Shown here: positions 8,479-42,971 of the stretch, piece by piece | Numbering within the stretch: position 1 is the first letter of the stretch | Layout: each line of letters starts with the position of its first letter | Assembly (NCBI RefSeq): GCF_000424625.1 | Contig: NZ_AUKG01000001.1 | Coordinates: 1,922,001 to 1,986,000 of the forward strand | Origin: Conexibacter woesei Iso977N | GTDB taxonomy: Bacteria > Actinomycetota > Thermoleophilia > Solirubrobacterales > Solirubrobacteraceae | DNA length: 64,000 nt | Direction: 5' to 3' | Translations under genes and position numbers: made by a program | The notes under the pieces: generated by a model | What the model was told of the DNA's origin: nothing | The model's database searches: none | What the model saw: the letters and a program-made list of their open reading frames with translations, nothing else

Positions 8479-9837
8479 ATGACCCTGACCGACCCTCTCC
8501 CCACGTTGGACGGCCGTCTGCTCCTCCCCGGCGACGACGGCTTCTCAGACGCGGCTCAGCCGTGGAACCTCTCGATCGCGCAGCTCCCCGCCGCGGTTGC
8601 CGAGGTCGCCTCGGTGGCCGACGTCCAGGCGGTGCTCGCCCATGCGCGCGCCGCCGGGCTGCGCGTCGCCGCGCAGTCCACCGGCCACGGCGCCGAGACG
8701 CTCGACACCGGCGCGCTGCGCGAGGCGATCCTGATCCGGACGCACGCGTTGGACGACATCTCGATCGACGCGGCCGCGCGCCGGGCCCGCGTCGGCGCGG
8801 GCGTGAAGGCCGCGGCGCTCGCCGCCGCCGCGGCCGAGCACGGGCTCGCGCCGGTGCTCGGCCTGGCGCCGTCGGTCGGCGTCGCGGGCCTGGCGCTCGG
8901 CGGCGGCCTCGGCTGGCTCGGCCGCGCGCACGGGCTGGCGAGCAACACCATCGTGTCGCTCGACGTCGTGACCGCCGACGGCGCGGCGCGCCGCATCGAC
9001 GACAACAACGACCCCGAGCTCTTCTACGCCCTGCGCGGCGGCGGCGGGTCCTACGCGATCGTCACCGCGCTGGAGCTGGCGCTGCACCCGGTCGACGCGG
9101 TCAGCGGTGGCGTGATCACGTTCCCGTTCGAGGTCGCGGGCGAGGTGCTCGAGCAGGTCCGGCGGATCGCCCCGTCGCTGCCGGACGCCGCGAGCCTGGT
9201 CGTCCGGATCGTCCAGGTCCCGCCGCTGGACACGATCCCGGAGGCGATGCGCGGCAAGCGCCTCGTGATGGTCGTCGCCACGCACCTCGGGCCGCACGCC
9301 GACGCCGAGCGGCTGTTCGCGCCGCTGCGCAGCGGCGCCGCGATCGTCGACACGTTCGGGCCGATCGGGCTGGCGGACCTCGTCCGGGTCGCGGGCGACC
9401 CGGAGGAGCCGGGCATGGCCCGCGGCGACGGCATGTTGTTGGAGGACCTGACGATCGACGCGATCGCGGCGCTCGGCGAGCTGCTCGACGACCCCGCGCT
9501 GGGCGGCGCGCTCGGCGTGATCGAGCTGCGCCAGCTCGGCGGCGCGCTGGCGCGGCCCGCGGCCGGCGGCGGCGCGATCGACCGCCTCGACGCGGGCTGG
9601 ACGTTCTTCACCGGCGGCTTCGCGCCGAACGCCGAGGTCGCGGCGGCGGTCCTCGCGGCCATCGCGGCGGCGAAGGACCGGATGGCGCCGTTCGCCGCGC
9701 CCGGGCTGCTGCTCAACACCACCGCGCTCGGCGCCGACCCGGCGCGCGCGTTCGCGCCCGAGGCGTGGGCGCGGCTGGCGCGGGTGAAGGCCCAGCACGA
9801 CCCGGACGACCTGATCCTGGCGGCGCACCGCGGATGA
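8479..9837 (+). CDS. FAD-linked (berberine-bridge/PCMH-type) oxidase
   Basis: A 452-residue FAD-dependent oxidoreductase of the PCMH/VAO superfamily. The FAD domain fills the N-terminal half: STGHGAET (~residues 70-77) carries the histidine position used for covalent flavin attachment, and VGVAGLALGGGLGWLGRAHG is the pyrophosphate-binding segment. The C-terminus ends RVKAQHDPDD, resembling the berberine-bridge tail. Such enzymes oxidise sugars, alcohols or natural products using O2; the substrate is unknown. An AGGAGA ribosome site (8463-8468) supports this ATG. It probably belongs with the divergent exporter and the AraC regulator just downstream. Confidence 0.88.
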   Translation: MTLTDPLPTLDGRLLLPGDDGFSDAAQPWNLSIAQLPAAVAEVASVADVQAVLAHARAAGLRVAAQSTGHGAETLDTGALREAILIRTHALDDISIDAAARRARVGAGVKAAALAAAAAEHGLAPVLGLAPSVGVAGLALGGGLGWLGRAHGLASNTIVSLDVVTADGAARRIDDNNDPELFYALRGGGGSYAIVTALELALHPVDAVSGGVITFPFEVAGEVLEQVRRIAPSLPDAASLVVRIVQVPPLDTIPEAMRGKRLVMVVATHLGPHADAERLFAPLRSGAAIVDTFGPIGLADLVRVAGDPEEPGMARGDGMLLEDLTIDAIAALGELLDDPALGGALGVIELRQLGGALARPAAGGGAIDRLDAGWTFFTGGFAPNAEVAAAVLAAIAAAKDRMAPFAAPGLLLNTTALGADPARAFAPEAWARLARVKAQHDPDDLILAAHRG

Positions 9838-9881: not shown

Positions 9882-10628
9882 ATGGACGAGCCGGGCGACG
9901 TCTACCTGGAGCTGGCCCCGCCGCCCGCGCTGGCGCGCCACGTCGAGCACCTGTGGGTCCATCGCTTCGGCGGCCCGCCGCCGCCCGAGGGGCGCCGGCT
10001 GCTGCCCGACGGCCGGATCAACCTGGTGTGGTTGAGCCAGACCGGCGCCCGGATCGCCGGCCCCGCGCAGACGTTCCTGCGCCCGCCGCCGGTCGACCGG
10101 CTGATCGCGTTCGGCGCGTCGTTCTGGCCGGGCGCGGCGCCGTACCTGCTGCGCACCGACGCGAGCACGCTGGTCGACGCGCACACGTCGCTGGACGACG
10201 TCGACCCGCGCCTCGCGCGCCGGATCGAGGCCCGGATGGAGCACGCCGCCACGCCCGAGGCGGCGCTGCGCGCGTTCGCCGCCGAGCTGGCCCGGCACCT
10301 CGACGCGGTCGACCCGCCCGACCCGGTCGTGCGTGCGGCGGTCCGGATCCTCGACCGCCCGGCGGCGACCGTCGCCGCCGCGGCCGAGGCGACCGCCGTC
10401 AGCGAGCGCGAGCTGCAGCGCCGCTTCGTGCGCGACGTCGGCTACGCGCCCAAGACGCTGCAGCGCGTCCTGCGCTTCCAGCGCTTCATGGGCCACCTGG
10501 AGCATCACCACGCACAACTCGCCGGCGCCGCCGCGCTGGCGGGCTACGCCGACCAGTCCCACCTCAGCCGCGAGGCGCGCAAGCTGTCCGGCCTGAGCCC
10601 GAAGCAGCTGATCGGTTTCCGCCACTAG
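9882..10628 (+). CDS. AraC-family transcriptional regulator
   Basis: A ~248-residue regulator. The N-terminal half has the YLELAPPPALARHVEHLW and LLPDGRINLVW features of the DUF6597-type sensing domain found in many actinobacterial AraC proteins. The C-terminal ~100 residues hold the two-HTH AraC DNA-binding domain, with the second HTH around LAGYADQSHLSREARKLSG. I prefer the ATG at 9882 because a G-rich ribosome site (CGGGGG) precedes it. An in-frame ATG at 9834 overlaps the oxidase stop as ATGA and would add 16 residues. It probably controls the oxidase and perhaps the divergent exporter; the ligand is unknown. Confidence 0.85.
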   Translation: MDEPGDVYLELAPPPALARHVEHLWVHRFGGPPPPEGRRLLPDGRINLVWLSQTGARIAGPAQTFLRPPPVDRLIAFGASFWPGAAPYLLRTDASTLVDAHTSLDDVDPRLARRIEARMEHAATPEAALRAFAAELARHLDAVDPPDPVVRAAVRILDRPAATVAAAAEATAVSERELQRRFVRDVGYAPKTLQRVLRFQRFMGHLEHHHAQLAGAAALAGYADQSHLSREARKLSGLSPKQLIGFRH

Positions 10629-35877: not shown

Positions 35878-36639
35878 ATGAGCCTGACGATGGCGACGGC
35901 CGCGCGCACCGATGACGTGCGCGGGCTGTTGGAGCGTTGGCACTACCAGGGCGACCGTGCGGCGCGCGACGAGGTCGCCGCACGCATGCTGCCACTGGCG
36001 CGCAGCCTGGCGCGCCGCTATGCGAACAAGGGCGAGCCGCTCGACGACCTCGAGCAGGTCGCGTGCGTCGGCCTGATCAAGGCGATCGACCGCTTCGACC
36101 TCACCCGCGAAGTGCGCTTCGCGACCTACGCGGTCCCGACGATCGCGGGCGAGCTCAAGCGCCACTTCCGCGACCGCGGCTGGATGATGCGCGTCCCGCG
36201 CGAGGTCCAGGAGCTGAGCGGCAAGATCGGCGTCGTGCGCGAGCGGCTCGTCCATGATCTTGCTCGCTCGCCGTCCGTGGCCGAGCTGGCGCGGGCGACC
36301 GGCGCCGACGAGGACCGCGTCGTCGAGGCGCTCGCCGCGGCCGAGGCGTACCGGACGCTTTCGCTGGACCAGCCGTTCCAGGACGGCACCGGCCCGCTGG
36401 AGGCGATCGGCGACGACGACCTCGGGTTCGAGCGCGCCGAGGCGCGCGCGATGCTCGCCGAGGGGCTGCACGAGCTGCCGCCGCGCGAGCGTGAGATCGT
36501 CCGGCTGCGCTACTTCGAGGGGCTCACGCAGCGTGAGATCGCCGAGCAGGTCGGGATCTCGCAGATGCACGTGTCGCGCCTGATCCGCCGCACCGTGCAG
36601 CAGCTGCGCGAGCGGATCGCGATGCCGGCCGCCGCCTGA
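35878..36639 (+). CDS. Second SigB/SigF-type sigma factor
   Basis: A 253-residue group 3 sigma factor, a paralogue of the one at 33811. The ATG at 35878 is chosen over an upstream in-frame ATG because GGAGGGG (35869-35875) precedes it and because the upstream extension would cover the inverted repeat. Region 2 (LARSLARRYANKGEPLDDLEQVA), the core RFATYAVPTIAGELKRHFRDRGWMMRVPRE in pieces, and region 4 HTH (LTQREIAEQVGISQMHVSRLI) are clear. It probably drives a stress regulon. An 11-bp hairpin starts 11 bases after its stop. Confidence 0.92.
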   Translation: MSLTMATAARTDDVRGLLERWHYQGDRAARDEVAARMLPLARSLARRYANKGEPLDDLEQVACVGLIKAIDRFDLTREVRFATYAVPTIAGELKRHFRDRGWMMRVPREVQELSGKIGVVRERLVHDLARSPSVAELARATGADEDRVVEALAAAEAYRTLSLDQPFQDGTGPLEAIGDDDLGFERAEARAMLAEGLHELPPREREIVRLRYFEGLTQREIAEQVGISQMHVSRLIRRTVQQLRERIAMPAAA

Positions 36640-36649
36640 GGGTGTAGAA

Positions 36650-36678
36650 CGTCGGGCGCCGTCCCATGGCGCCCGACG
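36650..36678 (+). promoter_or_regulatory. Hairpin with a start codon in its loop
   Basis: CGTCGGGCGCC (36650-36660) and GGCGCCCGACG (36668-36678) form a perfect 11-bp stem with the loop GTCCCAT. The ATG of the next gene (36666-36668) begins in the loop and ends at the first base of the descending arm. It could end the sigma-factor transcript, hold the start in a structure that limits translation, or both. Confidence 0.5.
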
Positions 36679-37181
36679 ACGACCCCATCCCGCAGCAGCC
36701 GAAGGAGGAGGCCCGTCGCGGCGAGGACGAGGCCGAGCGGCTGGACCGCGAGCTGATCGAGCTGCTCAACGAGCTGCGCGTCGTGATGCCGGGCGTGCAG
36801 GTGCTGTTCGGGTTCCTGCTGACGGTGCCGTTCCAGCAGCGGTTCGTGGACGTGACCGCGTTCCAGAAGAACGTGTACTTCGTCACGCTGCTGCTGACCG
36901 CGGTGTCGATCGCGTTCCTGCTCGGGCCGTCGGCCTTCCACCGCCTGACTTTCCGCCACGGGCAGAAGCCGTACCTGATCCACCTCGGCACGCGCCAGAC
37001 GATCACCGGGCTGGTGTTCCTGGCGCTCGCGGTCAACGGCACGCTGCTGCTGCTGAGCGACTTCCTGTTCGGCACGACCACCGTCGTGATCGTGATCGCT
37101 TGCACGGGAGTGCTTTTCACGTGGCTGTGGTTCGGGCTGCCGCTGTGGCGGCGGTCGACGCGCCATCGTCGCGAGTGGTGA
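36666..37181 (+). CDS. DUF6328 family membrane protein
   Basis: A 171-residue protein. A charged N-terminus (~1-30; EEARRGEDEAERLDRELIELLNELRV) is followed by four predicted membrane helices (~40-55, 70-88, 112-130 and 135-155). It matches the actinobacterial DUF6328 pattern, with RVVMPGVQVLFGFLLTVPF as its hallmark. Function is unknown. It lies between the second sigma factor and the encapsulin operon, 28 bases ahead of the Pro-rich gene, so it may be cotranscribed with either. The start codon falls in a strong hairpin, hinting at translational control. Confidence 0.82.
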   Translation: MAPDDDPIPQQPKEEARRGEDEAERLDRELIELLNELRVVMPGVQVLFGFLLTVPFQQRFVDVTAFQKNVYFVTLLLTAVSIAFLLGPSAFHRLTFRHGQKPYLIHLGTRQTITGLVFLALAVNGTLLLLSDFLFGTTTVVIVIACTGVLFTWLWFGLPLWRRSTRHRREW

Positions 37182-37209
37182 CCGCGGGTCGTGGGGTAGG
37201 TCGGTCCCG

Positions 37210-37392
37210 ATGACCGTGTTGGAAGTCCCGCAGCCCGTCGAACCGCCGACGCCCGTCGTGCCCGAGCCCGCGCCGACGCCGGCCGTGCCGGAGCCCGGTC
37301 CGGGGGTCGAGCCCGAGCCGGTCGGTCCGGACGTCCCGGAGCCGGACGCGCCGCGCGAGGACCCGATCGATCCGCCCGCTCCGGCCGAGTAG
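37210..37392 (+). CDS. Short proline-rich acidic protein in the encapsulin operon
   Basis: A 60-residue protein, almost wholly Pro, Glu, Val, Ala and Asp (VPEPAPTPAVPEPGPGVEP). It has no signal peptide or membrane span and should be disordered. It ends 10 bases before the ferritin-like cargo gene. Proline-rich disordered peptides can act as tethers or cargo adaptors, but nothing shows that here. Composition bias makes it possible that this is a chance open frame; the compact gene spacing argues for a real gene. Confidence 0.5.
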   Translation: MTVLEVPQPVEPPTPVVPEPAPTPAVPEPGPGVEPEPVGPDVPEPDAPREDPIDPPAPAE

Positions 37393-37402
37393 ATTCCGGG
37401 AC

Positions 37403-37795
37403 ATGGGCTTCGACCAGTACCACGAGCCTCCGGAGGAGCTGCCGGAGGAGACCCGCACGTTCGCGCGGCTGTGCGCGTCGCTGACCGAGGAGGCCGAGGC
37501 GATCGGCTGGTACGAGCAGCGGCTGGCGTTGGAGAAGGACCCGCAGGCGCACGCCGTCATGAGCGATGCGGTCGGCGAGGAGTACAAGCACTTCGCGATG
37601 GACCTGGAGTTCCTGCTGCGGCGCAAGCCGAAGTGGCGCGAGATCGCGCAGGGGGTCCTGTTCCAGGAGGGCGACATCGTCGAGCACGGCGAGGCCGCCG
37701 AGGCTGCCGCCGGCGAGGGTGAGGACGACGGCGATGCCGGCGGTCCGGGCGACGGCTCGCTGGGCATCGGCTCGCTGAAGGCGGTGTCGCTGTGA
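37403..37795 (+). CDS. Encapsulated ferritin-like protein (EncFtn cargo)
   Basis: A 130-residue protein of the encapsulated ferritin family. Two helices carry the iron-oxidising residues: E29, E30, E32 and W36 in SLTEEAEAIGWYEQR, and E59, E60 and H63 in VGEEYKHF, matching the di-iron and entry ligands of Rhodospirillum rubrum EncFtn (offset 2). EncFtn forms an annular decamer that oxidises Fe(II) but stores it only inside an encapsulin shell (established). A Gly/Asp/Glu linker leads to SLGIGSLK (119-126), the encapsulation targeting peptide. The stop overlaps the encapsulin start as GTGA. Confidence 0.95.
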   Translation: MGFDQYHEPPEELPEETRTFARLCASLTEEAEAIGWYEQRLALEKDPQAHAVMSDAVGEEYKHFAMDLEFLLRRKPKWREIAQGVLFQEGDIVEHGEAAEAAAGEGEDDGDAGGPGDGSLGIGSLKAVSL

Positions 37796-38601
37796 GCGCC
37801 GGGCATCTGCTGCGCGGCCACGCGCCGATCTCCGAGAAGGCGTGGGGGTTGATCGACGAGGAGGCCAAGGCGCGGTTGACGCCGGGCCTCGCGGGGCGGC
37901 GGCTGGTCGACTTCGAGGGGCCGAAGGGGTGGGAGCACTCCGCGACGTCGCTGGGACGGGTGAGCGACGAGGAGATCTCGCCTCTGGATCACGTCGAGGG
38001 GCGCGTCCGGCGGGTGCTGCCGCTGGTGGAGGTCCGGGCGCGGTTCGTGGTGTCGCGGGCCGAGCTGGCCGCGGGCGACCGCGGGGCCGAGGACGTCGAC
38101 TTCGACGAGCTGGACGCCGCCGCGCAGCGCGTGGTCGTCGCCGAGAACACGGCGGTCTTCCACGGCTGGAGCGACGCGGGGATCGACGGGATCGCGCGGC
38201 AGTCGCCGCACGACGCGATCCCCTGCGGCGACGAGGTCGACCGGTACCCGTCGTTCGTGGCGCGCGCCGTCGAGACGCTGTTGCGCAACGGCGTCGGCGG
38301 GCCGTACGCGCTGGCGCTCGGGCGCGAGGAGTACACGCGCGTCATCGAGATCGCCGAGCGCGGGGGAGTCCTGCTGTTCGACCACCTCCGCAAGATCCTT
38401 GGCGGGCCGATCGTCTGGGCGCCCGGAGTCGACGGAGGCGTCGTGCTGTCGCAGCGCGGCGGCGACTTCCTGTTCGACTCGGGCCAGGATCTGGCGGTCG
38501 GCTACGAGTCCCACGACGCCGAGAACGTGACGTTGTACCTGGAGGAGTCCTTCTCCTTCCGCGTGGCCTCGCCGGAGGCCGCGGTCGCCATCGTCCGCTG
38601 A
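37792..38601 (+). CDS. Family 1 encapsulin shell protein (linocin M18-like)
   Basis: A 269-residue HK97-fold shell protein from a GTG start. Family motifs include APISEKAWGLIDEEAKARL at the N-terminus, RRLVDFEGPKGWEHSATSLGR, GWSDAGIDGI, and YTRVIEIAERGGVL near residue 180-195. The C-terminal EDxTLYLEESFSFRV-like segment is read as ENVTLYLEESFSFRV. Subunits of this size normally form ~60-mers with pores for small ions. The shell should hold the ferritin-like cargo coded directly upstream. Whether other proteins are also packaged is not visible. The next gene starts almost at the stop. Confidence 0.96.
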   Translation: MSAGHLLRGHAPISEKAWGLIDEEAKARLTPGLAGRRLVDFEGPKGWEHSATSLGRVSDEEISPLDHVEGRVRRVLPLVEVRARFVVSRAELAAGDRGAEDVDFDELDAAAQRVVVAENTAVFHGWSDAGIDGIARQSPHDAIPCGDEVDRYPSFVARAVETLLRNGVGGPYALALGREEYTRVIEIAERGGVLLFDHLRKILGGPIVWAPGVDGGVVLSQRGGDFLFDSGQDLAVGYESHDAENVTLYLEESFSFRVASPEAAVAIVR

Positions 38602-38602
38602 G

Positions 38603-39046
38603 TTGTCGGTGCCATTGACAACGCCACCGCTGTCCGGGGTCCGGGCGGCGGTGGCGGCGCTGGAGTCCGCCGGGCTCGAAGTCGCCCTCGGCGGCTCCGG
38701 CCTCCTGGCCGCCCACGGCCTCGTCGAGCGCGTGAACGACTGGGACCTGACGACCGACGCGCCGGTCGACGCCGTCCTCGAAGCGCTGTTCGCCGCCGAG
38801 CTCCCGGTCTTCGCAGCCCGCGACGGGGCACCGGACGAAGCACCCCACGCCTCCCGCGCGCTCTTCTCCCTCCGCGGCTCTGTCGACCTCATCGTCGGCT
38901 TCGCCCTGCTGGACAGCGACGGGACCCGCATCCCCCTCCCGACGCGCGTGACAGGCCACTGGAACACCCTCCCGCTAGGTGACCTCGCGGTCTGGCGCCA
39001 GGCCTACACCCTCCTAGGCCACCCCACCCTCACCTCCACCCGCTGA
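38603..39046 (+). CDS. Nucleotidyltransferase-like protein
   Basis: A 147-residue protein with a GGSGLLAAHGLVERVNDWDLTTD segment, in pieces, typical of minimal nucleotidyltransferases (GS then DxD) related to AbiEii/MNT-type enzymes. The third Asp may lie in VDLIVGF. The start is uncertain: TTG at 38603 follows the encapsulin stop by one base, with GTG at 38609 as an alternative. It appears to be the last gene of the encapsulin transcript. Its substrate is unknown, and no HEPN or other partner is adjacent. The stop lies in a 7-bp hairpin (39040-39056). Confidence 0.65.
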   Translation: MSVPLTTPPLSGVRAAVAALESAGLEVALGGSGLLAAHGLVERVNDWDLTTDAPVDAVLEALFAAELPVFAARDGAPDEAPHASRALFSLRGSVDLIVGFALLDSDGTRIPLPTRVTGHWNTLPLGDLAVWRQAYTLLGHPTLTSTR

Positions 39047-39437: not shown

Positions 39438-39950
39438 CTAGGCCAGCCCCTCCGCCTCGTACTCGCGCAGGTACCCCTCGAACAGCCGGCGGTGGCCCTC
39501 CTCGTCGCGGAGGATCGCGATGACCATGTCGTTGGTCACCGGGTCGGTGCCCTCGGTCGCTTCGATGATCGCGTTGTAGTGCTCGATCGCGCCGGTCTCG
39601 GCCTCGATGACGCCCTTGATCACGTGGACGACGTCGGTCTGGTGCGCGGGCGGCTGCAGGTAGGACTGCTCCGGCGTGAACTCCAGGGAGCCCGGGACGA
39701 CCCCGTACAGCTCCTTGATCCGCGTCGCGAACTGCTGCGCGTGACCGAGTTCCTCCTGGATGTCGGTCTGCAGCGACTCGATGATCTCCTGGGCCCGGAC
39801 GCCGTCCGGGTTGATCGAGTTGGTGATGTAGCTGATCACGGTCTCGATCTCCATCCAATAGGCCTTCTTGAGCATCTCGATGATCTGCTCGCGCTCGGCC
39901 GACTTGTCATCCGCCAGGATGCCCTGGCTCGCGTTTCGGGTCGTGCTCAT
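39438..39950 (-). CDS. Ferritin-like (bacterioferritin/Dps-type) di-iron protein
   Basis: A 170-residue four-helix-bundle protein from the ATG at 39950. Candidate iron ligands fall in order: E in MEIETVISYITNSIN, E and H in IQEELGHAQQF, E and H in EAETGAIEHYN, and E/H in ILRDEEGHRRLFEGYL, the pattern of ferritin-like oxidases. No heme-ligand methionine is obvious. It has no encapsulation targeting peptide, so it is probably free in the cytosol and distinct from the EncFtn cargo. It is divergent by ~18 bases from the DJ-1/PfpI gene, suggesting shared stress control. Confidence 0.85.
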   Translation of the reverse strand: MSTTRNASQGILADDKSAEREQIIEMLKKAYWMEIETVISYITNSINPDGVRAQEIIESLQTDIQEELGHAQQFATRIKELYGVVPGSLEFTPEQSYLQPPAHQTDVVHVIKGVIEAETGAIEHYNAIIEATEGTDPVTNDMVIAILRDEEGHRRLFEGYLREYEAEGLA

Positions 39951-39968: not shown

Positions 39969-40535
39969 ATGAGCACGACGCTGAAAGACAAGAAGGTCGC
40001 GATCCTCGTCGCCAACGAGGGCATCGAGCAGGTCGAGCTGACCGAGCCGCGCAGGGCGCTCGAAGACGCCGGCGCGACCGTCGAGCTGCTCGCGCCGGAA
40101 ACCGGTGAGGCCCAGGCCTTCAACCACCTCGACAAGGCCGACGCGTTCCCGGTCGACAAGGCGGTGGGCGACGCCGACGCGTCCGACTACGACGCCCTCA
40201 TGCTTCCCGGCGGTGTCGCCAACCCCGACAACCTGCGCACGCACCCGGAAGCGGTCGAGTTCGTCCGCGCCTTCTTCAAGGACCACAAGCCGGTCGCCGC
40301 GATCTGCCACGCGCCCTGGACCCTCATCGAAGCCGGCGTCCTCGACGGCCGCACCGTCACCTCCTGGCCGTCGCTGCAGACCGACCTCCGCAACGCGGGC
40401 GCCACCTGGGTCGACGAGGAGGTCGTCGTCGACCAGGGCCTCGTCACCTCGCGCAACCCGGACGACCTCCCGGCCTTCAACGCCAAGATGATCGAGGAGA
40501 TCGCCGAGGGCGCGCATGCAGGCCAGACGGCCTAG
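39969..40535 (+). CDS. DJ-1/PfpI family protein
   Basis: A 188-residue member of the DJ-1/PfpI superfamily (class I glutamine amidotransferase-like fold). The nucleophile elbow is AAICHAPW with C113 and H114; E17 in ANEGIEQVE is the supporting acid. The family includes YhbO-like stress proteins, deglycases/glyoxalases and the Pyrococcus PfpI protease. The conserved Cys-His-Glu supports an active enzyme, but which activity is unclear. The start is 18 bases from the divergent ferritin-like gene. Confidence 0.92.
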   Translation: MSTTLKDKKVAILVANEGIEQVELTEPRRALEDAGATVELLAPETGEAQAFNHLDKADAFPVDKAVGDADASDYDALMLPGGVANPDNLRTHPEAVEFVRAFFKDHKPVAAICHAPWTLIEAGVLDGRTVTSWPSLQTDLRNAGATWVDEEVVVDQGLVTSRNPDDLPAFNAKMIEEIAEGAHAGQTA

Positions 40536-42055: not shown

Positions 42056-42077
42056 CGTCGGGCATCCTTCACCGTCC

Positions 42078-42971
42078 ATGCCCCGATCGATCTGGACCGG
42101 CGCCATCAGCTTCGGGCTCGTGACCGTGCCCGTGAAGCTCTACAGCGCGGTCAACCGCAAGTCCGTCCGCTTCAACCAGCTCAACGGCAAGACCGGCTCC
42201 CGGATCGCCCAGAAGCGGGTCGATGCCTCCACCGGCGAGGAGGTCAACTACGAGGACCTCGTCAAGGGCTATGAGATCTCCAGCGACCGCTACGTCGTGA
42301 TCGAGCCCGAGGAGCTCGACTCGGTCCAGCCCGCGAAGACCAAGACCATCGACATCGAGGACTTCGTCGACCTCGCCGAGATCGACCCGATCTTCTACGA
42401 CCACCCGTACTACCTGGCCCCGGCCACGGGCGGCGCCAAGCCCTACCGCCTGCTGCTCGAGGCGATGCGCGAGACCGAGAGGGTCGCGATCGCCAAGGTC
42501 GTCATTCGCCAGAAGGAGTCGCTGGTCGCCATCCGCGCGCTCCAGGACGCCGACGTCCTCGAGATGGCCACCATGCTGTTCGCCGACGAGGTCGTCGACC
42601 CCGACCGCCTCGACGACATCCCCGGCGCCGACGACGTCAGGACCAACGACCGCGAGCTGGCGATCGCCAAGCAGCTCGTCGAGTCCCTCGCCGGCGAGTT
42701 CGAGCCGGAGAAGTACAAGGACACCTACCGCGAGGCCGTCCTCGCGATGATCGAGAAGAAGGCCGCCGGCGAGGAGATCGTCGTCGTCGAGGCCGAGGAG
42801 GAGGCGGCGCCCGCCCCGGACCTCATGAGCGCCCTGAAGGCCTCGCTCGACGCGGTCCGCAAGACCAGCGGCACACCCGCCGCCGACGACGCCGAGGAGA
42901 AGCCCAGGCGCAGGCGCGCCGGCTCGTCCACCGCGTCCAGGCCGAGGGCGAAGTCCACGGCCAAGAAGTAG
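42078..42971 (+). CDS. ku: Ku DNA-end-binding protein
   Basis: A 297-residue bacterial Ku. It opens with MPRSIWTGAISFGLVTVPVK, the family signature, followed by the Ku core ring (~1-250; NQLNGKTGSRIAQKR and EPEELDSVQPAKT). The C-terminal ~45 residues form a basic, Ala/Lys/Arg-rich tail, typical of actinobacterial Ku and thought to aid DNA threading. Ku homodimers bind double-strand ends and recruit LigD for end joining. No ligD gene is visible in this window. The Ku gene ends 37 bases ahead of the topoisomerase IB ATG. Confidence 0.96.
   Translation: MPRSIWTGAISFGLVTVPVKLYSAVNRKSVRFNQLNGKTGSRIAQKRVDASTGEEVNYEDLVKGYEISSDRYVVIEPEELDSVQPAKTKTIDIEDFVDLAEIDPIFYDHPYYLAPATGGAKPYRLLLEAMRETERVAIAKVVIRQKESLVAIRALQDADVLEMATMLFADEVVDPDRLDDIPGADDVRTNDRELAIAKQLVESLAGEFEPEKYKDTYREAVLAMIEKKAAGEEIVVVEAEEEAAPAPDLMSALKASLDAVRKTSGTPAADDAEEKPRRRRAGSSTASRPRAKSTAKK

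What the first reader, a model, noticed from the sequence alone, without database searches (positions are those of the whole stretch)
36666..39046. Encapsulin nanocompartment operon with uncharacterised flanking genes
The window shows a complete family 1 encapsulin system: an EncFtn cargo with its di-iron ligands and a C-terminal SLGIGSLK targeting peptide, overlapping the shell gene as GTGA. EncFtn/encapsulin iron storage is established. What is not explained is the company it keeps: a DUF6328 membrane protein, a 60-residue Pro/Glu-rich peptide 10 bases before the cargo, and a nucleotidyltransferase-like gene one base after the shell stop. A second ferritin-like protein without a targeting peptide and a DJ-1/PfpI protein lie within 1.5 kb. 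The Pro-rich peptide and the nucleotidyltransferase are candidates for accessory parts, for example a tether or an enzyme acting on the shell (inference).
Basis: partly seen in the sequence, partly recalled or inferred. Interest (0 to 1): 0.75.

Follow-up and report, generated by a model that had tools for sequence, protein, structure and literature searches.

The report
Iron-storing encapsulin in a stress-gene island
A standard bacterial protein shell that stores iron sits inside an older cluster of stress-response genes, so its odd-looking neighbours are best explained as the cluster it landed in and not as new parts of the shell.

Summary
The genes are real and correctly placed: a family 1 encapsulin shell (37792-38601) overlapping an EncFtn ferroxidase cargo (37403-37795) with a SLGIGSLK targeting peptide. 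The idea that the neighbours are accessory parts is not supported. Two congeners without an encapsulin match carry the same neighbours in the same order: sigB-like sigma factor, DUF6328, HAD hydrolase, Pro-rich peptide, Dps-like ferritin, DJ-1, Ku. The Pro-rich gene is real and under purifying selection, but 13 of its 14 hits in 101 genomes lie in this HAD/Ku cassette. Only 5 of the 13 (window and four congeners) carry EncFtn-shell, placed after Pro-rich. One genome has the cassette and an encapsulin on different contigs. Of the window's neighbours, only the shell recurs widely in 80 EncFtn loci (60 of 80). The nucleotidyltransferase-like gene occurs beside no other encapsulin examined and looks like a shortened newcomer. 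A TAnnnT box 7 bases before the EncFtn start, overlapping the Pro-rich stop, suggests a leaderless promoter for the pair. The strict targeting motif occurs once in the genome. Verdict: ordinary encapsulin in an unusual place.

The parts
35878..36639 (+). SigB/SigF-type RNA polymerase sigma factor, start of the stress cassette
   Evidence: TIGR02980 E 2e-79, over cut-off; present in congeners G001, G002, G003, G005, G006, with or without encapsulin; the G004 contig does not reach that far
36666..37181 (+). DUF6328 protein (hydrophobic, probably membrane), cassette member, not an encapsulin part
   Evidence: PF19853 E 1.5e-46; in 54 of 101 genomes; between sigB and HAD in encapsulin-free G003 and G006
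37210..37392 (+). Pro/Glu-rich 60-aa protein, conserved cassette gene of unknown function; core LEVPQPxExPTPVVPEP
   Evidence: in 14 of 101 genomes; 13 of these in the HAD/Ku cassette, 8 without encapsulin there; purifying selection
37390..37395 (+). putative -10 box TAGATT (TAnnnT), sharing TAG with the Pro-rich stop codon, 7 nt before the EncFtn ATG, no Shine-Dalgarno-like site: leaderless promoter (inference)
   Evidence: sequence; TAnnnT 6-9 nt before the start in 13 of 64 loci, including all 5 of the genus
37403..37795 (+). EncFtn, encapsulated ferritin-like ferroxidase cargo with C-terminal targeting peptide SLGIGSLK
   Evidence: PF22277 E 1.4e-20; PDB 33bf E 2.9e-23, 7oe2 E 3e-18, 5da5 E 4.8e-16; alignment of 16
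37792..38601 (+). family 1 encapsulin shell protein
   Evidence: NF041155 E 2.3e-84; PDB 9ry4 E 1.1e-68
38603..39046 (+). nucleotidyltransferase-like ORF, shortened, found at this place only in this genome; true start uncertain
   Evidence: of 100 other relatives one weak unlinked match; GGS and DxD kept, conserved C-terminal stretch of homologues missing
39438..39950 (-). Dps-like ferritin, no targeting peptide, convergent with the shell; cassette member
   Evidence: PF00210 E 2e-16; PDB 7stw (Dps) E 2e-10; 86-93% identical homologues with and without encapsulin beside them
39969..40535 (+). DJ-1/PfpI protein, cassette member
   Evidence: TIGR01382 E 2e-49, over cut-off; conserved place
42072..42971 (+). 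Ku (NHEJ) protein, end of the conserved cassette
   Evidence: PF02735 E 5.7e-52; conserved order

Best explanation
This is a canonical two-gene family 1 encapsulin system. EncFtn oxidises ferrous iron and is drawn into the shell by its C-terminal SLGIGSLK peptide; the shell holds the ferric mineral (function by homology). In the ancestor of this clade the cargo-shell pair was inserted into a pre-existing stress/DNA-protection cassette: sigB-type sigma factor, DUF6328, HAD hydrolase, (CsbD), Pro-rich protein, then convergent Dps-like ferritin, DJ-1, Ku. It sits between the Pro-rich stop and the Dps-like stop. The neighbours are therefore the landing site, not parts of the compartment. In the window the HAD gene has been lost and an unrelated nucleotidyltransferase-like gene has appeared after the shell. 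Shown: gene identities, the same cassette without encapsulin in congeners and other genera, and lack of recurrence elsewhere. Inferred: direction (insertion, not repeated loss), a leaderless promoter for the pair, and possible co-expression with the stress genes.
For: G003 and G006 have no PF04454 match yet carry sigB-DUF6328-HAD-(CsbD in G003)-ProRich-Dps-DJ1-Ku. G009 carries DUF6328-HAD-CsbD-ProRich-Dps-Ku on contig C34 and its encapsulin on C43. Pro-rich: 14 of 101 genomes, 13 in the HAD/Ku cassette, 5 of those 13 with EncFtn-shell. Of 80 EncFtn loci 60 have the shell match; DUF6328 in 2, a congener (L060) and L084 (3.5 kb, other strand). NTase: besides the window 1 weak unlinked hit in 100 relatives and 5 of 295 phylum genomes, none with an EncFtn or shell match in the stretch fetched. 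The five genus shells are one group in the shell tree (SH-aLRT 83). The strict TP pattern occurs once in the genome, in EncFtn.
Against: Insertion versus loss rests on parsimony: the cassette-gene tree, with missing data, has weak support where G002, G003 and the outgroups meet (44-53). G003 is 81% complete, so its lack of an encapsulin elsewhere is less sure than in G006 (97%, one contig). DUF6328 is somewhat commoner in encapsulin genomes (17 of 23) than in the rest (37 of 78), counted by hand, one of each below the family cut-off. Pro-rich is kept in 5 of 5 encapsulin-bearing congeners, 9-26 bases before the cargo, while HAD decays, so later co-option is possible. A sigB-like gene lies 1.0-2.6 kb upstream on the other strand in 6 of 80 EncFtn loci, so a looser tie to stress sigma factors is not excluded. 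No expression or protein data.
Confidence: 0.9

Rival explanations
1. The Pro-rich peptide and/or DUF6328 are accessory parts of the encapsulin (tether, membrane anchor, regulator).
For: Adjacent and co-directional with short gaps; Pro-rich kept in 5 of 5 encapsulin-bearing congeners and under purifying selection.
Against: Both occur in the same order in congeners with no encapsulin match; Pro-rich lies in 8 cassettes without encapsulin at the locus (for G008, G012, G040 and G054 only about 3 kb was looked at); neither was found beside 18 encapsulin loci outside the genus, though several of those contigs are short.
Confidence: 0.05
2. The nucleotidyltransferase-like protein acts on the shell or cargo.
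For: Starts one base after the shell stop on the same strand if the TTG start is right; catalytic-type motifs kept.
Against: No match to it in the four congeners with the system; homologues elsewhere are not beside encapsulins in the stretches fetched; the conserved C-terminal stretch is missing; a later start is preferred by codon usage.
Confidence: 0.03
3. The cargo-shell pair is ancestral to the cassette and was lost from G003, G006 and the other genera.
For: Support for the branching order is weak.
Against: Among the 13 Pro-rich cassettes only those of five congeners carry the pair; G009 holds its encapsulin on another contig; the nearest shells (L062, L047, L048) show none of the cassette genes in the DNA held, which is short for L047 and L048.
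Confidence: 0.1

Closest known systems
EncFtn-encapsulin systems with targeting-peptide cargo, e.g. Rhodospirillum rubrum and Haliangium ochraceum (PMC8346489: section 7 read; PMC11202242: sections 5 and 10 read, other passages seen)
   Same: EncFtn domain with ExxH motif, C-terminal targeting peptide of the same kind, shell gene directly downstream, family 1 shell profile
   Different: Sequence is distant from the solved cargos (86 bits to PDB 33bf, 69.8 to 7oe2, 62.6 to 5da5); the pair is inserted in a stress-gene cassette; putative leaderless promoter
s-FLP proteins, short EncFtn-like proteins without targeting peptide (PMC11202242, section 5 read)
   Same: ferroxidase domain: 61-78% identity to the window cargo in the 19 of 80 loci without an adjacent shell
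   Different: 18 of those 19 lack a targeting peptide by the pattern used; the window protein has the peptide and a shell. That these 18 belong to the s-FLP class is my reading
General stress genes of the SigB type with CsbD, Dps and Ku (recalled; no paper read on this cassette)
   Same: sigma factor, CsbD and Dps-like proteins together
   Different: a specific order with DUF6328, HAD and Pro-rich, seen here in the window's genus and, with gaps, in several genera of its family

Membership tests
Family 1 encapsulin | shell protein matches the family 1 profile | tested here: met
   NF041155 282.8 bits against cut-off 100; PF04454 264.4 against 24.3
[quoted passage not shown]
   SLGIGSLK near the EncFtn end, genes overlap as GTGA
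Family 1 encapsulin | HK97 fold and assembly into an icosahedral shell | not tested
   shell structure not predicted; inferred from 25 distinct PDB sequences matched at E <= 1e-10
EncFtn | EncFtn profile | tested here: met
   PF22277 73.3 bits over cut-off 27; but TIGR04535 90.3 bits is under its cut-off of 125
EncFtn | di-iron ligands incl. ExxH motif | tested here: met
   E30, W36, E60, H63 invariant in 16 sequences and aligned with two solved cargos; ExxH from PMC11202242 section 5, exact ligand positions recalled
EncFtn | decameric assembly and ferroxidase activity | not testable with these tools
   needs purified protein
Encapsulin accessory gene (DUF6328, Pro-rich) | recurs beside encapsulins and not without them | tested here: not met
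Encapsulin accessory gene (NTase-like) | recurs beside encapsulins | tested here: not met
Nucleotidyltransferase | NTase fold with GG[GS] and DxD motif | tested here: inconclusive
   motifs present in alignment, but no Pfam match over cut-off, no PDB hit, single-sequence model pLDDT 36.6
Encapsulated cargo (Dps-like protein) | targeting peptide | tested here: not met
   ends GYLREYEAEGLA; the strict motif occurs once in the genome, in EncFtn

The most novel reading that the evidence does not exclude
The Pro-rich protein is a new family of short, probably disordered stress proteins belonging to a sigB-HAD-(CsbD)-Dps-DJ1-Ku DNA-protection cassette. In this clade the cassette has captured an EncFtn encapsulin, so that two iron-sequestering systems (a Dps-like ferritin and an encapsulin) serve one stress programme, with the end of the Pro-rich gene doubling as the encapsulin promoter.
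Probability: 0.3. Interest if true: 0.45.

Novelty: new member of a known kind. Interest (0 to 1): 0.27.

Why it matters
It removes three candidate accessory genes from the encapsulin list and shows how a congener without the compartment separates true partners from a landing site. It also points to an uncharacterised, selected Pro-rich gene in a stress cassette, and to a genome where a Dps-like ferritin and an EncFtn encapsulin are close neighbours, useful for asking why cells keep two iron stores. PMC11202242 (passage in its iron storage section) says that, to its authors' knowledge, no study compares Bfr/Ftn/Dps and EncFtn directly in one organism.

Tried and rejected
Accessory role of DUF6328, Pro-rich and NTase: rejected by the encapsulin-free congeners and other loci. 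Second cargo: a strict targeting pattern was searched in the whole genome, one match, in EncFtn; divergent peptides would be missed. NTase fold: AlphaFold2 on the single sequence failed (pLDDT 36.6), so no fold search was made. Cassette-gene tree: support too weak to decide gain versus loss on its own. Literature: in the held library no paper holds DUF6328, encapsulin with Conexibacter or encapsulin with Solirubrobacter; this covers open-licence PMC papers only. Pro-rich ORFs found by composition in G011 and G016 were not recovered by the profile and are not counted. A general survey of all genes beside encapsulins was not made: looked only for the window's own neighbours (and HAD).

Full report
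Observation. The shell is a family 1 encapsulin by NCBI's own model (NF041155, 282.8 bits against a cut-off of 100). The cargo matches the EncFtn Pfam model over cut-off and solved EncFtn chains (best E 2.9e-23); it falls below the cut-off of the NCBI model TIGR04535. Its ExxH motif is invariant in 16 related sequences, as is the SLGIG of the targeting peptide. Cargo stop and shell start overlap as GTGA.

Which neighbours recur. PF04454 was found in 23 of 101 genomes (the window's own plus 100 relatives). Window neighbours were searched by tblastn in the 22 other encapsulin loci: 4 from congeners, 18 from elsewhere, several on short contigs. In the congeners the order sigB, DUF6328, (HAD), Pro-rich, EncFtn, shell, Dps-like, DJ-1, Ku is largely kept. 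Exceptions: L035 holds only the end of DUF6328 at its contig edge, and in L039 the Dps-like gene is broken, with its first part, DJ-1 and Ku about 46 kb away. In the 18 others no DUF6328, Pro-rich, NTase or Dps-like match was found; one locus (L029) has a sigB-like gene and DJ-1. A scan of GTDB genomes gave 193 relatives of the EncFtn profile, of which the best 80 were kept. In those 80 60 have a shell match after EncFtn, 19 have none although the contig goes on, and L096 ends at its contig edge. DUF6328 appears only in the congener L060 and, 3.5 kb away on the other strand, in L084 (matches covering under a quarter of a query were dropped). The Dps-like gene appears only in the congeners L060 and L066. 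A sigB-like gene lies 1.0-2.6 kb upstream on the other strand in 6 of 80. Three further records labelled Conexibacter (L051, L058, L077) have the pair among other genes.

The decisive comparison. Congeners G003 (81% complete) and G006 (97%, one contig) have no PF04454 match. Both carry sigB-DUF6328-HAD-Dps-DJ1-Ku, and between HAD and Dps both carry the Pro-rich ORF, G003 with a CsbD gene before it. In G003 and G006 the Pro-rich stop lies about 22 and 90 nt from the Dps-like stop (sequences); in the encapsulin-bearing congeners this gap holds the cargo-shell pair. A profile of nine Pro-rich proteins found 14 of 101 genomes. Of these 14, 13 lie in the HAD/Dps/Ku cassette: the seven congeners, G008, G009, G012, G023, G040, G054 (for G008, G012, G040 and G054 only about 3 kb was seen, and the Dps-like gene is not seen in G012, G040 and G054). 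The 14th (G020, contig C423) is a weak hit elsewhere; G020's own cassette on C311 has CsbD but no Pro-rich gene. Five of the 13 carry EncFtn-shell. G009 has an encapsulin, but on another contig. Thus DUF6328 and Pro-rich are cassette genes.

The Pro-rich protein. pN/pS was 0.29-0.54 in 14 of the 15 pairs of the six congeners other than G006, and 0.94 in the other pair (G005/G001); the six pairs with G006 give 0.48-0.89. It is therefore most likely a selected protein of unknown function; low complexity makes the alignment uncertain.

The NTase-like gene. Among the window and 100 relatives only the window has a good match and one other (G028) a weak unlinked one; in a phylum sample 6 of 296 genomes including the window. 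The five non-window phylum loci and the G028 locus, fetched with 13-19 kb, contain no EncFtn or shell match. In congeners L034, L035 and L037 the shell is followed by the Dps-like gene within about 30-140 bases, and in L039 by other genes. The window protein lacks the conserved C-terminal stretch of its homologues. Its fold is unproven.

Expression. In 64 loci (63 with a shell seen, plus L096 at a contig edge) 13 have TAnnnT 6-9 nt before the cargo start, against a mean of 0.92 and a maximum of 5 in 1000 single-base shuffles; 1 of these 13 has a Shine-Dalgarno-like site against 43 of the other 51. In 19 loci without a shell none has the box at 4-10 nt. The 13 include all five encapsulin-bearing members of the window's genus and four Solirubrobacter records, two of them identical there, so they are not 13 independent cases; in four of the five congeners the TA comes from the Pro-rich stop codon. 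TANNNT is the mycobacterial -10 motif (passages of PMC3898074), and such a signal around 12 bp upstream of the start is taken to mark leaderless genes in bacteria (passages of PMC3160421). This is inference, not proof.

Origin. In a 68-row shell tree (quick method) the five genus shells are one group (SH-aLRT 83), within a group of eight (96) whose other members are L062, L047 and L048; none of these three shows cassette genes in the DNA held (L047 and L048 are short). The cassette-gene tree does not contradict a single insertion but is weakly supported. L034 and L035 are identical to records JAOPZG010000031.1 and JAOPZP010000474.1, labelled Conexibacter sp., so the window very probably belongs in or near Conexibacter.

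Function. By homology the compartment oxidises and stores iron. The review PMC11202242 (passage in its iron storage section) notes the suggestion that such systems may serve against oxidative stress rather than as primary storage. A place among sigB, Dps-like, DJ-1 and Ku genes fits that, but location alone does not show it.

Noticed in passing
window 37181-37210; L039 reverse strand about 9163-9681: The HAD hydrolase gene between DUF6328 and Pro-rich in G002, G004 and G005 is gone from the window; in G001 a shortened HAD reading frame is fused in frame to Pro-rich.
   Followed up: partly
L039 4201-4401; L202 6538-6849: In G001 the Dps-like gene is in two pieces about 46 kb apart, with DJ-1 and Ku beside the first piece: a rearrangement or large insertion.
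   Followed up: no
L091, L094, L097, L102, L103, L105, L107, L110, L113-L115, L117-L120, L122-L124; L180-L182: Close EncFtn homologues without targeting peptide or adjacent shell occur in Arthrobacter, Leifsonia, Cryobacterium and other records (18 of 80 loci). In the window's class many EncFtn frames also stop at about residue 107; in the three of these fetched no shell match was seen. PMC11202242 describes short forms (s-FLP); how they store iron without a shell is open.
   Followed up: partly
L111 10001-10384: Skermania EncFtn with a targeting-peptide-like end (SLDIGGLKG) but no shell match in the 20 kb held.
   Followed up: no
L032 7598-8404 (reverse-complement coordinates); L040 6362-8798: G016 has a family 1 shell with no EncFtn match beside it; G015's shell follows a long ORF that looks like a DyP peroxidase (recalled resemblance, not searched) and ends with a targeting-like GTLGIGALK.
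   Followed up: no
L049, L052, L057, L059, L065, L071, L081: Seven Solirubrobacterales cargos have SLGIRSL in place of SLGIGSL, which could show how the shell groove tolerates changes.
   Followed up: no
L169 about 10180-10210: In encapsulin-free G006 a GC-rich inverted repeat (AAGGGCCCGC...GCGGGCCCTT) lies between the Pro-rich stop and the convergent Dps-like gene, possibly a terminator of the cassette (read from the sequence).
   Followed up: no
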